DNA from: Yoonia sp. BS5-3
GTDB lineage: Bacteria > Pseudomonadota > Alphaproteobacteria > Rhodobacterales > Rhodobacteraceae
Direction of reading: 5' to 3'
Assembly (NCBI RefSeq): GCF_038069655.2
Contig: NZ_CP150951.2
Span: forward strand, 62,001-126,000
DNA length: 64,000 nt
The notes under the pieces are model-generated. The model was not told the origin of the DNA. It saw only the letters and a list, made by a program, of their open reading frames with translations, and made no database searches. The number at the start of each line of letters is the position of its first letter. Within the stretch, counting starts at the first letter, position 1. The position numbers were made by a program, and so were the translations under genes. Of this stretch, positions 27,000-62,586 are shown piece by piece.

Positions 27000-27407
27000 A
27001 ATCGGGATGGTAGCGCGAAAATGCGTGTATGCAATGCGTACATATCCCGTACAGCTTGTGTACATATGATTTCGGCAATTTGCGCGTGGGTGCGCGTTTT
27101 GGGGGCGCGTGGGTTTCACCCACCCTACGGAACGTCAGCCGGGATGAGCGCCGGACCGAGGGGCGGCGATGCGCCATAGCCCGCAGCTTGATTTATGGTG
27201 GCCAGATACATCTTCCATTTCGGCGGTGTGCGAGGTTGACCAAATCGCCGACCCGCTGGGTCGGTGTCGCCATTGTCTCTCGGACCAATGGCGTTCCAAT
27301 GGCGACCGATCAGACCGGCGCCATCGGCTTGTCGCGGTCAGGTTAGCAAGTGGGTTTCTCCCATCCTACAGGAAAAACCCCCCGGTGGAAATGTCCCGCC
27401 CGGCAAC
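27000..27407. repeat. Repeat- and hairpin-rich intergenic region left of the insertion element
   Basis: No convincing gene in these 408 bases. It holds GTACATAT twice (27038-27045, 27060-27067) around GTACA-GCTTG-TGTAC (27049-27063). The hairpin-forming repeat GTGGGTTTCACCCACCCTAC occurs at 27110-27129, with a degraded copy (GTGGGTTTCTCCCATCCTAC) at 27350-27369. A CCGACCC-GCT-GGGTCGG hairpin lies at 27248-27264, and CGCCATTG (27268-27275) pairs with CAATGGCG (27286-27293), which recurs at 27297-27304. The region ends in the left half of a REP-like repeat that the element interrupted. Confidence 0.65.
27400..27407 (+). repeat. 8-bp target site duplication, left copy
   Basis: CCGGCAAC immediately before the left terminal repeat; identical to 29927-29934 after the right terminal repeat. 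Confidence 0.9.
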
Positions 27408-27428
27408 GGTAGTGGGTCACTTTGAAAT
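27408..27428 (+). repeat. Left terminal inverted repeat
   Basis: Twenty-one bases beginning GGTAGTGGGTCACTTTGA, exactly complementary to 29906-29926. It includes the transposase stop codon (27417-27419). Confidence 0.95.
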
Positions 27429-28310
27429 ATCTTTTTTCTTATAAGGCCCGCGTTTCTTTGGCGCAGCGTCTTCTGCCTTTTCTACCAGCTTGATAATGTC
27501 TTCAACTTCCCAAGGGCTTTCGACAAGGCCAGCGGCCATTGCTGGCGTCATGCGCAGCGTCTTGTGTGTGCGAACAAAGTTGTAGTGCATAAAGTGAAGG
27601 GCAACCGCATAGGCGTGGTTCTCCGCCTTCTTAGAGAAAGCGTTGGTAAGGCGAGTGAAGCGACGCATACCCATGCGCATTGTCAGGTTTTGGCGCTCAA
27701 TGTGCGATGTGCCAACATCTTCCATGATTGGATTGCCAAATACCTTCTCTTTGATCGCGCCAGTGCACTCGGCGGGGGAATACTTGCGCTCATGGCCTTT
27801 TGTGCCCGTAGGGTCGCCGTACTGCTTTATCAGCATCGCGTAATCTACATCGCCGGAGAATGCGTCTGTAACGGCCTTGAGGTAAGCGCCGTGGCCGTCT
27901 GTGGTCAACTGGATGCGATTGGCAACGCGGGATGCCAAATCGAACATGAACTCACGGGCTGTTGCGCCGGAACGATCACCGATTGTGTAAGAGATCATCA
28001 ACTTGCTGTCGCGATCCATTGCAGTCCACGTCCAAATGTCGCCAGCATCCGCAGGTGCGGCCTTCGCGCCCTCAACGTTTTTCGCTTTGGCGTAGCAGAA
28101 TGACCAAATCTCGTCTGCCTGAACGTGCTTTGCCTCGACGCCCTTGACGTTTTCGTCATGGTAGGCGGCGCAAGCTTTGCCCGCATCCTCAAGCAGCTTG
28201 CTGACGGTGTTCTTGGACACGTCAGCAATCCGCGATGTGGCGCGGATGGAGTTGCCCTCCACCAGAAGGCGGATGATCAAGGCGCGGGTTTTGGTGTCCA
28301 ATTTTCTCAT
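27417..28310 (-). CDS. DDE transposase, IS1-like family
   Basis: A 297-residue complete transposase of the type usually labelled IS1 family in alphaproteobacteria. A helix-turn-helix-like N-terminus (about 10-42, RLLVEGNSIRATSRIADVSK) is followed by a catalytic core with a plausible DDE triad: Asp66 in QADEIWSF, Asp138 in TTDGHGAY and Glu205 in SHIERQNLTMRM. A basic C-terminus ends in PKKRGPYKKKD. Unlike classical IS1 there is no two-frame InsA-InsB' arrangement; it is one continuous frame. The reading frame is intact and the terminal repeats are perfect, so the element may be active. Confidence 0.93.
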   Translation of the reverse strand: MRKLDTKTRALIIRLLVEGNSIRATSRIADVSKNTVSKLLEDAGKACAAYHDENVKGVEAKHVQADEIWSFCYAKAKNVEGAKAAPADAGDIWTWTAMDRDSKLMISYTIGDRSGATAREFMFDLASRVANRIQLTTDGHGAYLKAVTDAFSGDVDYAMLIKQYGDPTGTKGHERKYSPAECTGAIKEKVFGNPIMEDVGTSHIERQNLTMRMGMRRFTRLTNAFSKKAENHAYAVALHFMHYNFVRTHKTLRMTPAMAAGLVESPWEVEDIIKLVEKAEDAAPKKRGPYKKKDISK

Positions 28311-28322
28311 ACAGCCAACCTA

Positions 28323-28343
28323 ATTTCAAACTGACCGATAGTC
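28323..28343 (+). repeat. Internal degenerate copy of the right terminal repeat
   Basis: ATTTCAAACTGACC (28323-28336) matches the inner part of the right repeat, ATTTCAAAGTGACC, at 13 of 14 positions in the same orientation; the outer seven bases have mostly diverged. It sits 12 bp upstream of the transposase start, where the right end of a minimal single-gene IS (about 936 bp, 27408-28343) would be expected. Confidence 0.6.
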
Positions 28344-28368
28344 AAGCAAAAGATACCTTGAAAAGCCG

Positions 28369-28403
28369 AACTAACCTTAGTAATGCTATCACTAAGGTTA
28401 GTT
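28369..28403 (+). promoter_or_regulatory. 12-bp perfect inverted repeat between transposase and ATPase genes
   Basis: AACTAACCTTAG (28369-28380) and CTAAGGTTAGTT (28392-28403) are perfect inverted repeats with an 11-bp spacer, placed in the divergent intergenic region 59 bp from the transposase start and 28 bp from the ATPase start. It looks like a dyad operator or a docking site for one of the element's own proteins. Its presence also argues against the ATG at 28383, which would lie inside it, as the ATPase start. Confidence 0.65.
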
Positions 28404-28430
28404 TATAGGGAACTAGAAATAGTGGTGAAG

Positions 28431-29666
28431 ATGACGGATGACGACTGGCGAGCTTTGAGGTTCCACGCAGCGGACCTATTTACTCCATCAAGTCCAGTGA
28501 CGACAACTGAACTGTTTGCCGGTCGGGCATCGCAGATCGATAAGTTGGTTGAGGCTGTCGCGGAACGTGGTCGTCATGCGATCTTGTTTGGTGAGCCAGG
28601 CGTTGGGAAAACTTCAATTGCAAAGCTTCTCCAATATTTTGTCCCAAGGGGATTAAAGAGCGTCCAGTATGTCCGCAAGGCTGTGGTTAGCACGGATACG
28701 TTTACCTCGATCTGGGAGAATGTTTTCCGGAGCATCAAATTTCAAGCTCATAGGGATGGCATTTATCAGGAGTACAACGTCGCAGACTTGTACCCAGATA
28801 ATATCAGTCCATCAGACGTTGTTCGCGAACTAAATTATTTCGGAGAATCGGTAATTCCCATCATCGTTATTGATGAATTCCAACAGCTTAAAGATGAAGA
28901 GGCCGCCCGCCTAATGTCTGAGACTGTTAAGGCCGTGTCGGACGAGGGCACACCTGCGACTATCGTAGTGGTTGGGGTGGGCGACAATGTGGATGATCTC
29001 GTCCGAGGTCACGGCTCAATTATCAGATGTTCCGAAGAGGTTTTGATGCCCCGCATGAAGACCGAGGAAATCCAGTTGCTTCTCAATCAACGGATTGAGC
29101 AGCTCGGAATGACACTTAGCGGTGACGCAAAATGGAAAATTACGGGTCTTTCTAAGGGTCTCCCTTCTTTCGCACACGCCTTAGGGAGAGCATCTGTTTA
29201 TTCTGCAATTGATAGGCAAAGCCTAAACGTCGCCGAAGAAGACATTGATAATGGGATTTTGACCGCGATTGAAAGCTCCCAGCACACTCTCAAAAGTGCG
29301 TATGAGACTGCCACGAATAGTAATCAGGCAAGAGCTACATTTCGGCAGCTTTTAACGGCATGTGCGCTTACCAAAACCGATGCAAGTGGATGGTTCACTC
29401 CAAAGGATGTGGAGCAACCATTTAGTGGTATCATCGGAGAAAAAAGAACGGTTGAATATTTTAACGGTAATCTTACCGACTTCGCCTCTGATAAGAGAGG
29501 AGACATACTTCAGCAAAAGGGTACCGTTAGGAATTTTAGGTTTAGGTTCACGGAACCTGCCATGCAGCCATATGTATTGATGAAAGGCATTCAGGCGGGG
29601 ATCATTCCCGAAGACGCTATGAGCGCTCTTTCGTCTCCTGAACAGGGTGAACTTTTTGCGATTTAG
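28431..29666 (+). CDS. AAA+ ATPase carried by the insertion element (ORC/TniB-like in layout)
   Basis: A 411-residue P-loop ATPase. FAGRASQIDKLVEAV (29-43) resembles the box that precedes the P-loop in ORC1/Cdc6-like and STAND ATPases. Walker A is GEPGVGKTS (54-62), Walker B IIVIDEFQQL (144-153) and sensor-1-like VVVGVGDN (179-186). A lid and a C-terminal helical/winged-helix-like region follow. No transposase, nuclease or TIR domain is fused. Its layout recalls the target-selection ATPases TniB, TnsC and IstB, but such partners are not established for IS1-like transposases. The start at 28431 is preferred because the ATG at 28383 lies in a dyad repeat. Function is inference. Confidence 0.85.
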   Translation: MTDDDWRALRFHAADLFTPSSPVTTTELFAGRASQIDKLVEAVAERGRHAILFGEPGVGKTSIAKLLQYFVPRGLKSVQYVRKAVVSTDTFTSIWENVFRSIKFQAHRDGIYQEYNVADLYPDNISPSDVVRELNYFGESVIPIIVIDEFQQLKDEEAARLMSETVKAVSDEGTPATIVVVGVGDNVDDLVRGHGSIIRCSEEVLMPRMKTEEIQLLLNQRIEQLGMTLSGDAKWKITGLSKGLPSFAHALGRASVYSAIDRQSLNVAEEDIDNGILTAIESSQHTLKSAYETATNSNQARATFRQLLTACALTKTDASGWFTPKDVEQPFSGIIGEKRTVEYFNGNLTDFASDKRGDILQQKGTVRNFRFRFTEPAMQPYVLMKGIQAGIIPEDAMSALSSPEQGELFAI

Positions 29667-29862
29667 CCTCGCCCCCCTTGCGGGCAATTGCTTCGCGCTC
29701 TGCCTTGGTTAGGTTTCTGGCTCTCGCCTTTCCGCCTTTTAGACCGCCCTTGCGCTGCGCTGACGTGTCAGGCTCATGCACAGGTTCTTCACCTGTCGCC
29801 ACGTCCACAATGAACTTGGCAAGCTGGTTGGCGTCACGGGGTCTTCTGGTTTTATCTGTCAT
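29617..29862 (-). CDS. Small basic Gly/Lys/Arg-rich protein of the insertion element
   Basis: An 81-residue basic protein: RPRDANQLAKFIVDVATGE (7-25), then the repeat-like KGGLKGGKARARNLTKAERE (38-57), ending in a charged tail. Proteins with this KGG-x-ARA-x-LT-x2-ER pattern are frequent next to IS1-like transposases in Rhodobacteraceae and Rhizobiales (from memory), which supports a role in the element, possibly nucleic-acid binding. It overlaps the convergent ATPase 3' end by 50 bp, so each transcript is antisense to the other. A plausible promoter and palindrome lie between it and the right terminal repeat. Confidence 0.8.
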   Translation of the reverse strand: MTDKTRRPRDANQLAKFIVDVATGEEPVHEPDTSAQRKGGLKGGKARARNLTKAEREAIARKGGEAKSQKVHPVQETKERS

Positions 29863-29870
29863 GATCCCAA

Positions 29871-29900
29871 GATAAGCACTCCCTCGCGCGAGGGCAAACT
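29871..29900 (-). promoter_or_regulatory. Promoter with 14-bp palindrome for the small basic protein
   Basis: On the minus strand TTGCCC (-35-like) and TATCTT (-10-like) are separated by 17 bp. The perfect palindrome CCCTCGCGCGAGGG (29881-29894) overlaps the -35 and spacer, an arrangement typical of a repressor operator. It lies directly inside the right terminal repeat. Confidence 0.5.
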
Positions 29901-29905
29901 ATCTA

Positions 29906-29926
29906 ATTTCAAAGTGACCCACTACC
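29906..29926 (-). repeat. Right terminal inverted repeat
   Basis: Exact reverse complement of 27408-27428. Confidence 0.95.
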
Positions 29927-29934
29927 CCGGCAAC
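29927..29934 (+). repeat. 8-bp target site duplication, right copy
   Basis: CCGGCAAC, identical to 27400-27407. Continuing into GCCGGG, it completes the hairpin into which the element inserted. Confidence 0.9.
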
Positions 29935-61683: not shown

Positions 61684-62586
61684 TCAAACCTTCGTTGCAG
61701 ACACAACCGGGGTCACTGACCGCCGGGCGACGGCTTCGCGCCAGGTGATGAAGGTCACTGATCCCAGGATCACCGCGCCGCCCAATACCACCCAGCCATC
61801 CACTGGTTCGCCGAAAACGACAGCGCCTAGGATCACCGCCCATACCAGCTGCAGAAAAGTCACTGGTTGAGTCACGGTCAAGGGCGCCGCGGCAAAGGCC
61901 AGTGTCATCGTGTAATGCCCCGCCGTTGCAAAGCAGGCCACCAGGAACAACCAACCAAGCTGAGGTAGGGTGGGTGTAACCCACACGGCCCAAGCAAAAG
62001 GGGAAAGCCCGATTGTGACCGTGATCGACAACATGCCAACCACCACAGCCGCGCTGACCTCGCCCGATAGCTGCTTGGCAATCAGATAGCCCGCAGCAAA
62101 GAACAACGCCGTGCCCAACATGGCGATATGACCAATCTCAATCGCCTTCATGCCCGGGCGCAGGATGATCAGGGCGCCGATCAGCGCGACAATGACAGCG
62201 GCAAGGCGGCGCGGCGGTAGCCTTTCGCCCATGAACAGTGCCGCCCCGATCGTGATATAAACGGGCGATAGGTAATTCATGGCCGTTACCTCGGCGATGG
62301 GAATGCGCGCCATGGCAAAGAACCACAAGATAACCGCGAGCGTATGCACCGCCCCGCGCAGGCCAAAAAGCCTGATCTGCCGGCCCGTCAGCCGGGCTGC
62401 CACAATGGGGCGGATCATCGGGATCAGAAAAACAAGCCCCAGCACATAGCGCAAAAATGCGGCCTGCGCGGCAGGCACCCCGTCACCCACATGTTTGACC
62501 ACGGCGGTGACTGCAACAAACATCACCCCGGTCAGGGCCATCCAAAGAATGCCCGCTAAAGGGCGCGATGCTTGGGGAGATTGCAT
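61684..62586 (-). CDS. EamA/DMT-family transporter
   Basis: A 300-residue permease with ten hydrophobic segments in two EamA repeats. The first repeat shows AAQAAFLRYVLGLVFLIPM and AEVTAMNYLSPVYITIGAALFMGERL; the second ends QLVWAVILGAVVFGEPVDGW. Typical of RhaT/RarD-like exporters of metabolites. The ATG at 62586 (MQSPQASRPLAG) is chosen over 62634. Substrate unknown. Confidence 0.9.
   Translation of the reverse strand: MQSPQASRPLAGILWMALTGVMFVAVTAVVKHVGDGVPAAQAAFLRYVLGLVFLIPMIRPIVAARLTGRQIRLFGLRGAVHTLAVILWFFAMARIPIAEVTAMNYLSPVYITIGAALFMGERLPPRRLAAVIVALIGALIILRPGMKAIEIGHIAMLGTALFFAAGYLIAKQLSGEVSAAVVVGMLSITVTIGLSPFAWAVWVTPTLPQLGWLFLVACFATAGHYTMTLAFAAAPLTVTQPVTFLQLVWAVILGAVVFGEPVDGWVVLGGAVILGSVTFITWREAVARRSVTPVVSATKV

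What the first reader, a model, noticed from the sequence alone, without database searches (positions are those of the whole stretch)
27408..29926. IS1-like transposon carrying its own AAA+ ATPase and a small basic protein
The sequence shows perfect 21-bp terminal repeats and an 8-bp duplication enclosing a DDE transposase, a 411-residue AAA+ ATPase and an 81-residue basic protein. AAA+ partners that choose target sites are known for Tn7 (TnsC), Tn5053-like (TniB), Mu (MuB) and IS21 (IstB), but I know of no described case for IS1-like transposases. The arrangement, with shared ends and divergent regulation, suggests the ATPase could be a target-selection or immunity factor newly recruited to an IS1-type enzyme, or else cargo. 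This would be a new class of transposition system or a new cargo-bearing IS.
Basis: partly seen in the sequence, partly recalled or inferred. Interest (0 to 1): 0.85.

Follow-up and report, generated by a model that had tools for sequence, protein, structure and literature searches.

The report
IS1-type transposon with exchangeable defence cargo
A small jumping gene of the IS1 type carries an ATPase gene in a slot that its relatives fill with many other genes, often toxin-antitoxin or anti-phage genes, so the ATPase looks like swappable (probably defensive) cargo rather than a new part of the jumping machinery.

Summary
Anatomy confirmed: 8-bp duplication, perfect 21-bp ends, IS1-type transposase, 411-aa AAA+ ATPase, 81-aa basic protein. 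The ATPase as recruited target-selection factor is not supported. Of 60 related loci, 46 were delimited, 41 with exact 8-bp duplications; they share ends, transposase and, clearly in 45 of 47 elements counting the window's, the basic protein, with variable DNA between. Only 2 of 46 carry the ATPase. One genome holds two nearly identical ATPase-less copies at different sites. Element-borne ATPases are not one clade (at least three changes) and lie among phage and chromosomal copies. Other cargo: PD-Lambda-2-type, RosmerTA and Panacea modules, a BglII-type restriction-modification pair. PADLOC: of 50 largest cargo proteins 13 match PD-Lambda-2_B and 6 RmrA; among 50 flanking proteins no family matches more than one. 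Best reading: a transporter-IS lineage moving interchangeable, often defence-type cassettes, with the ATPase (ORC/STAND-like fold, common in phages) a candidate single-gene defence cassette. The basic protein, not the ATPase, is the constant second gene. Function is inferred.

The parts
27400..27407 (.). left copy of the 8-bp target-site duplication CCGGCAAC
27408..27428 (+). left terminal inverted repeat GGTAGTGGGTCACTTTGAAAT (21 bp, perfect)
27417..28310 (-). IS1-type DDE transposase, 297 aa; acidic residues D66, D138 (47 of 47 aligned transposases) and E205 (46 of 47) conserved
28349..29725 (.). cargo cassette: stretch without nucleotide similarity to a near relative that carries other cargo (element positions 942-2318)
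   Evidence: window element against L112
28369..28403 (.). operator-like inverted repeat AACTAACCTTAGT-N9-ACTAAGGTTAGTT in front of the ATPase; L114 has the same layout with a matched base change; not seen in the same interval of L112, L057, L117
28431..29666 (+). AAA+ ATPase, 411 aa (AAA_22 / AAA_16 / nSTAND1), predicted ORC/Cdc6-STAND-like fold
29617..29862 (-). small basic protein, 81 aa, with RRPRDANQLAKFIVD and KGGLKGGKARA motifs; constant second gene of the lineage; its 3' end overlaps that of the ATPase by 50 bp
29906..29926 (-). right terminal inverted repeat (21 bp, perfect)
29927..29934 (.). right copy of the 8-bp target-site duplication

Best explanation
The element is one member of a lineage of IS1-type transporter insertion sequences, found so far in the window's own class of bacteria. 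Its constant parts are the two ends, the transposase and, on the other side of the cargo, the small basic protein (shown). Between transposase and basic protein, and in some members also between the left end and the transposase, lies variable, exchangeable DNA (shown). The transposase moves the whole unit and leaves 8-bp duplications (shown by anatomy; no transposition was observed). The cassettes are often toxin-antitoxin, restriction-modification or other anti-phage modules (shown by profile matches). In this copy the cassette is one AAA+/STAND-like ATPase with its own operator-like repeat. Inferred: the ATPase is a self-contained defence or exclusion gene, shared with prophages, that benefits the host or stabilises the element; it is not needed for transposition.
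For: 46 related elements delimited out of 60 loci, 41 with exact 8-bp duplications; 2 of 46 have the ATPase. Window element and L112 match at 1-941 (80%) and 2319-2519 (87%) with nothing between; L138 (ATPase) and L141 (P63C protein), in one genome, match 91% over 1-1140 and again near the right end, with unrelated middles. L058/L059: same element and cargo twice in one genome, different duplications, no ATPase. Cargo class needs at least 20 changes on the transposase tree, 38 of 47 elements labelled (classes seen once count too). Element-borne ATPases are rejected as one clade, at least 3 changes. PADLOC, largest cargo protein of 50 elements: PD-Lambda-2_B 13, RmrA 6, SoFic 1, PDC-S13 1; flanking control: no family in more than 1 of 50. 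Further: Panacea, BglII + MT-A70, RmrT beside RmrA, HigB-like toxin. ATPase relatives in 42 viral loci, 4 of which (L171, L175, L176, L193; L175 and L176 alike) also hold the transposase; in phage Kevin1 the gene lies between lysis genes and integrase/repressor, the region to which cluster N defence genes map (PMC7542560, passages).
Against: No PADLOC family clearly takes in the ATPase (best E 2.4e-4 for the window protein; 1.6e-5 for L138, candidate PDC-S27), and no experiment that I saw links this ATPase family to defence. About half of the 50 cargo proteins have no PADLOC match. The flanking control is not free of defence-type matches (restriction methylase, GajB, PglX, MzaA), so some elements may simply lie in defence-rich regions. 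The ATPase recurs in the slot in several branches, which could mean a benefit to the transposon itself. Some relatives weakly match TniB (6 of 12, best 1.6e-5), the profile weakly matches VchTnsC (E 4.7e-4), and TnsC is among the fold matches.
Confidence: 0.72

Rival explanations
1. The ATPase is a TnsC/TniB/IstB/MuB-like partner that chooses targets or gives immunity for this IS1-type transposase.
For: It sits beside the transposase inside the ends, recurs in five intact elements (window, L114, L138, L171, L175/L176), has an AAA+ fold with TnsC among the structural matches (TMq 0.50), and some relatives weakly match TniB (6 of 12).
Against: Absent from 44 of 46 delimited relatives; an ATPase-less element stands at two sites of one genome with different duplications; ATPases of elements are polyphyletic; 38 of 42 viral loci with the ATPase, and the chromosomal loci L002-L006, show no transposase in the stretch held. 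TniB (14.8 bits, cutoff 22.4) and IstB (13 bits, cutoff 200) profiles not reached by the window protein.
Confidence: 0.06
2. The cassette works as an addiction module: the ATPase mainly stabilises the transposon or its replicon rather than fighting phages.
For: Many sister cassettes are toxin-antitoxin modules; the ATPase has an operator-like repeat of its own; a stabilising role was proposed for toxin-antitoxin pairs in Tn3-family transposons (PMC7157771, sections 14 and 16 read).
Against: The ATPase stands without a visible partner gene in the window element, L114 and L138; its presence in many phages makes plain exclusion or defence likelier.
Confidence: 0.15
3. The ATPase is a neutral passenger, caught by chance, without selected function in the element.
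For: Low frequency, 2 of 46; about half of the cargo proteins are of unknown kind.
Against: Walker A and B residues are invariant in 12 aligned relatives; at least three changes between element and non-element copies on the tree, most simply three gains, and the frame is intact in the window element, L114, L138, L171 and L175.
Confidence: 0.07

Closest known systems
IS1 family insertion sequences
   Same: PF03400 transposase domain, conserved acidic residues, 8-bp duplication, ends beginning GGTAGTG
   Different: One uninterrupted 297-aa transposase frame; 71 bits against the NCBIfam IS1 cutoff of 100; unit of 2.2-4.2 kb with a second constant gene and cargo
Transporter IS (tIS), IS derivatives with passenger genes
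   Same: Single-IS ends enclosing a transposase and passenger genes (definition seen in passages of PMC9330008 and PMC7986276)
   Different: Recurrent exchange of defence-type cassettes in a fixed slot, and a constant small basic protein
Tn3-family transposons with toxin-antitoxin passengers (PMC7157771)
   Same: Several unrelated toxin-antitoxin modules acquired repeatedly at a fixed place beside the transposition genes (sections 14 and 16)
   Different: Different transposase; no resolvase gene recognised among the frames named here; cassettes also include restriction-modification and ATPase genes
TnsC / TniB / IstB / MuB helper ATPases
   Same: AAA+ fold; encoded beside a DDE transposase
   Different: Not co-inherited with the transposase and absent from 44 of 46 relatives; also found alone in phages and chromosomes
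STAND and ORC/Cdc6-type ATPases
   Same: nSTAND1 37 bits (cutoff 27.1); best fold matches Cdc6/Orc1, higher TM-score for the Pyrococcus ATPase 2qen
   Different: Short (411 aa), without the effector domain typical of long STAND defence proteins (recalled)

Membership tests
IS1 family | DDE_Tnp_IS1 domain | tested here: met
   PF03400 42 bits, cutoff 24.1
IS1 family | NCBIfam IS1 equivalog cutoff | tested here: not met
   NF033558 71.3 bits, cutoff 100; still the best of the transposase equivalogs: a divergent member or sister group
IS1 family | 8-9 bp target duplication and ends GGnnnTG (feature recalled) | tested here: met
   8 bp and GGTAGTG in the window; exact 8-bp duplications in 41 of 46 relatives
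IS1 family | catalytic acidic triad | tested here: met
   D66 and D138 in 47 of 47, E205 in 46 of 47 aligned transposases; their catalytic role is recalled
Transporter IS | passenger genes within the ends of a single IS | tested here: met
   46 relatives with differing middles inside the same kind of ends
TnsC/TniB/IstB/MuB helper ATPase | co-inherited with the transposase | tested here: not met
   2 of 46 relatives; polyphyletic
TnsC/TniB/IstB/MuB helper ATPase | family profile cutoff | tested here: not met
   PF05621 TniB 14.8 bits (cutoff 22.4); NF038214 IstB 13 bits (cutoff 200)
TnsC/TniB/IstB/MuB helper ATPase | needed for, or directing, transposition | not testable with these tools
   needs a transposition assay; ATPase-less copies at two sites of one genome argue against need in the lineage
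STAND/AAA+ ATPase | nSTAND1, AAA_22 and AAA_16 profiles, Walker A and B | tested here: met
   K60, D148, E149 invariant in 12 relatives
Known anti-phage system | clear match to a PADLOC family | tested here: not met
   only weak matches, best 2.4e-4 for the window protein, 1.6e-5 for L138

The most novel reading that the evidence does not exclude
An undescribed IS1-type lineage that specialises in carrying interchangeable immune modules, whose second obligate transposition component is the small basic KGG-motif protein. Its sequence type goes with the type of terminal repeat: 21 of 22 GG-type ends have the RPRD type, and every clearly typed protein in elements with other ends is of the KGP type. 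The AAA+ ATPase would be a new single-gene anti-phage system found through this carrier.
Probability: 0.35. Interest if true: 0.75.

Novelty: new variant of a known kind. Interest (0 to 1): 0.56.

Why it matters
If right, unknown genes in these ends become candidates for new anti-phage or toxin-antitoxin systems, and the fixed slot (about 0.94 kb of left end plus transposase, about 0.2 kb of basic protein plus right end) makes them easy to find and test. It would also show that very small transposons, not only islands and prophages, can shuttle single immune modules, and it raises a direct question about the role of the constant basic protein in IS1-type transposition.

Tried and rejected
Target-selection partner: tested by presence/absence in 46 relatives, by trees and by profiles, and rejected as the leading reading.

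Target immunity: L193 seems to hold one such element inside an ATPase-bearing one (ATPase pieces 19-74 and 125-413 far apart, with a Panacea-like frame, a basic-protein piece and one right end between them), but the inner left end was not found and the outer ends lack a matching duplication; suggestive only.

Covariation of basic protein and end type as proof of contact: 21 of 22 GG-type ends go with the RPRD type and the exception is L143, but on the transposase tree this is close to a single switch, so it is weak evidence. The exception list printed was over-long because of a labelling slip of mine (GGT not merged with GGG); I read the pairs from its counter line.

Operator-like repeat as a family feature: 8 of 45 upstream stretches at shuffle p of 0.05 or less (L175 and L176 are the same), so not general; only 100 shuffles each, and stretches with the same best repeat (L163, L164) gave p 0.089 and 0.020.

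Fold search cannot tell TnsC-like from ORC/STAND-like.

Rows not fetched: 3 of 18 family places, 1 of 11 new order places, 2 of 32 class places, 5 of 10 plasmid records (one of them a short match in a Spirosoma plasmid, outside the Proteobacteria), and 5 of 9 new phylum-level genomes (G1015, G648, G1025, G1221, G1202). Loci not delimited: 14 of 60 (L065-L071, L120, L129, L133, L134, L137, L149, L156), mostly fragments or cut by contig ends. 7 of the 46 were delimited without requiring a duplication; of these L121 and L153 have exact duplications, L148 one mismatch, and L117, L124, L139, L152 none. L058 and L059 are one element twice and count as two of the 46 and of the 50. Gene calls inside elements are longest non-overlapping frames, so some cargo frames may be spurious, above all between transposase and basic protein in elements with cargo on the left.
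Full report
Observation. The ends are GGTAGTGGGTCACTTTGAAAT, perfect over 21 bp, flanked by CCGGCAAC on both sides; no other place in the window matches the end with up to 3 mismatches, and none was found in 100 shuffles. Inside are a transposase 27417-28310(-), an ATPase 28431-29666(+) and a small basic protein 29617-29862(-). The element and its transposase have one match each in the host genome; the ATPase has one full match and two weak local ones.

Transposase. It matches Pfam DDE_Tnp_IS1 (42 bits, cutoff 24.1) and, below cutoff, the NCBIfam IS1 equivalog (71 of 100 bits). In 47 aligned transposases D66 and D138 are invariant and E205 is present in 46. It is an IS1-type enzyme, divergent from classical IS1.

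Relatives. I searched the transposase in 295 genomes of the family (15 with a match at E up to 1e-10), 390 of the order (14 at 1e-60), 385 of the class (28 at 1e-60), 319 of the phylum (13 at 1e-40, all in the window's class) and in plasmid records (10 at 1e-20). The four genome counts include the window's own genome, and the samples overlap. The four full-length named plasmid carriers fetched are Alphaproteobacteria (Methylocapsa, Mesorhizobium, Acidiphilium, Hoeflea); a short match in a Spirosoma plasmid was not followed. Of 60 loci fetched for analysis (15, 40), 46 could be delimited: 24 with ends of at most 3 mismatches and an exact 8-bp duplication, 7 by ends and 15 with the left end further from the transposase, all with exact duplications. 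Exact duplications are present in 41 of the 46. Four more (L220-L223) were delimited with exact duplications later.

Architecture. Oriented so that the transposase reads toward the left end, the basic protein lies to the right of it. It was found in all 47 elements (46 and the window's) at the permissive cut-off used; in L150 and L151 that hit is weak or partial, so I count 45 of 47 as clear; in L126, L131 and L150 it reads the other way. Variable DNA lies between transposase and basic protein; in the 15 elements another 0.3-1.4 kb lies between the left end and the transposase. The window element and L112 share positions 1-941 (80% identity) and 2319-2519 (87%), with no similarity between; L138 and L141, from one genome, share 1-1140 at 91% and two stretches at the right end (80 and 87%) and have unrelated middles. 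This is cassette exchange between constant flanks.

The ATPase is a minority cargo. Among the 46 it is found in L114 (71% identical) and L138 (36%). In viral contigs a search seeded with the ATPase gave 42 loci; four of them also hold the transposase (L171, L175, L176 and the broken L193). L171 and L175/L176 (the latter two alike) are complete elements with exact duplications; L175 lacks a detectable basic protein. A tree of 46 ATPases rejects element-borne copies as one clade (AU p 1.7e-31) and needs at least three changes; they lie among phage and chromosomal copies (quick tree, some long branches). The window's nearest transposases by path belong to elements with other cargo (L057, L112, L113), then L114. 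L058 and L059 are two nearly identical copies of one ATPase-less element in one genome with different duplications, so the lineage transposes without an ATPase. A dedicated target-selection partner would not look like this.

What else is carried. Pfam and PADLOC scans of chosen cargo proteins identified PD-Lambda-2_B in L058 and L113, a HigB-like toxin in L113, with homologous 98-aa frames in L124 and L148, RmrA in L121, L132, L144, L147 and L155, with RmrT beside it in L144 and a homologous frame in L155, SocA/Panacea in L063 and L139 with homologues in L064, L119 and L143, a BglII-type endonuclease with an MT-A70 methylase in L115, an Abi_2 protein in L112, Bro-N in L142, P63C in L141 and L150 and an SDH-type serine protease in L154. 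For a count, the largest cargo frame of each of 50 elements (46 and L220-L223; the window's left out; frames chosen) was scanned against PADLOC at 1e-10: PD-Lambda-2_B 13 (L058 and L059 both counted), RmrA 6, SoFic 1, PDC-S13 1, and candidate families PDC-S05, PDC-S24 and PDC-S04 1 each. As a control the largest frame within 2.5 kb outside each element was scanned: 48 families matched, none in more than 1 of 50, among them restriction methylase, GajB, PglX and MzaA models. The tool does not give the number of distinct flanking proteins hit, the flanking frames are longer, and the flanks are not free of defence-type matches, so the control is rough. Adding the 5 Panacea elements and the restriction-modification pair to the 21 elements with PD-Lambda-2_B, RmrA, SoFic or PDC-S13, about 27 of 50 elements carry a recognised toxin-antitoxin, restriction-modification or candidate defence gene; the rest are mostly unassigned.

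The ATPase itself. It has intact Walker motifs; nSTAND1, AAA_22 and AAA_16 pass their cutoffs. The predicted structure (mean pLDDT 82, six sequences) is closest to archaeal Cdc6/Orc1 by E-value; 2qen has the higher TM-score (0.54) and TnsC scores 0.50, so the fold does not separate an ORC/STAND from a TnsC reading. It matches PHROG 6841 (E 6.5e-42, unknown function). Outside the elements it occurs between unrelated genes on chromosomes (by eye) and in many phages. In mycobacteriophage Kevin1 it is gene 30, between lysis genes and integrase/repressor. Kevin1 is a cluster N phage (title in a reference list), and cluster N defence genes map to the central variable region between lysis and immunity cassettes (PMC7542560, passages). 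Upstream of the ATPase the window and L114 have the same operator-like inverted repeat with a matched base change (shuffle p about 0.01 each), while L112, L057 and L117 show none there. This suggests that the cassette brings its own regulation.

The basic protein. In the 295 family genomes its profile matches 17 places in 14 genomes (the first look scores a limited number of candidates per genome, so this may be low). Nine are in delimited elements; of the other eight, six lie beside a lone end-like sequence, one of which (G194) is probably the other half of an element cut by contig ends, and two do not. It therefore looks like a part of this transposon rather than a free gene. Its two sequence types go with two types of end: 21 of 22 GG-type ends have the RPRD type; of the 25 other ends, 22 were typed KGP by the script and one more (L064) is KGP by eye, with L150 and L151 not typed. 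Because this is close to one switch on the transposase tree, it does not prove contact, but it makes the basic protein the better candidate for a second transposition factor.

Known or new. Insertion sequences with passenger genes (transporter IS) are known (PMC9330008, PMC7986276, passages). Tn3-family transposons with repeatedly acquired toxin-antitoxin modules are described (PMC7157771, sections 14 and 16). RosmerTA is described as phage defence (PMC10440598, passages). The listings of seven library searches showed no description of IS1-type elements with exchangeable defence cargo; ISfinder could not be consulted, and I recall that its IS1 entry lists a group with members up to about 4.6 kb. 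I file this as a new variant of a known kind.

Limits. Transposition, defence and any role of the basic protein are inferred from sequence. The same site in close relatives could not be checked.

Noticed in passing
27110-27130 and 27351-27371 (+), 61963-61983 (-): Short repeat TGGGTTTCWCCCAYCCTACRG, three copies with up to 3 mismatches (mean 0.00 in shuffles); two lie just left of the element. Possibly a palindromic intergenic repeat of the host.
   Followed up: partly
L115, element positions 69-1371 (L115:6968-8267): A BglII-type restriction endonuclease and an MT-A70 methylase lie between the left end and the transposase: a restriction-modification pair within IS1-type ends.
   Followed up: partly
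L193:92-7109: An ATPase-bearing element appears interrupted by a second element of the same kind with a Panacea-like gene: possible nesting, which would argue against strong target immunity.
   Followed up: partly
L219:5310-5671: A 362-bp stretch with one end of each type, an exact duplication CAAAGCTA and a piece of the basic protein but no transposase: a possible non-autonomous miniature.
   Followed up: no
L057, L123, L136, L143, L145: A shared cargo family of 250-312 aa; of those scanned, L057 has no Pfam match above cutoff and L145 none: a candidate new defence or toxin-antitoxin gene.
   Followed up: no
L146, L222: A shared pair of unknown cargo proteins (about 260 and 80-90 aa) in two elements.
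   Followed up: no
29863-29905: The basic protein starts 43 bp from the right terminal repeat (64 bp from the element's end), so its promoter must lie in or very near the repeat; in L060, L117, L121 and L145 a further frame of 56-98 aa lies there.
   Followed up: no
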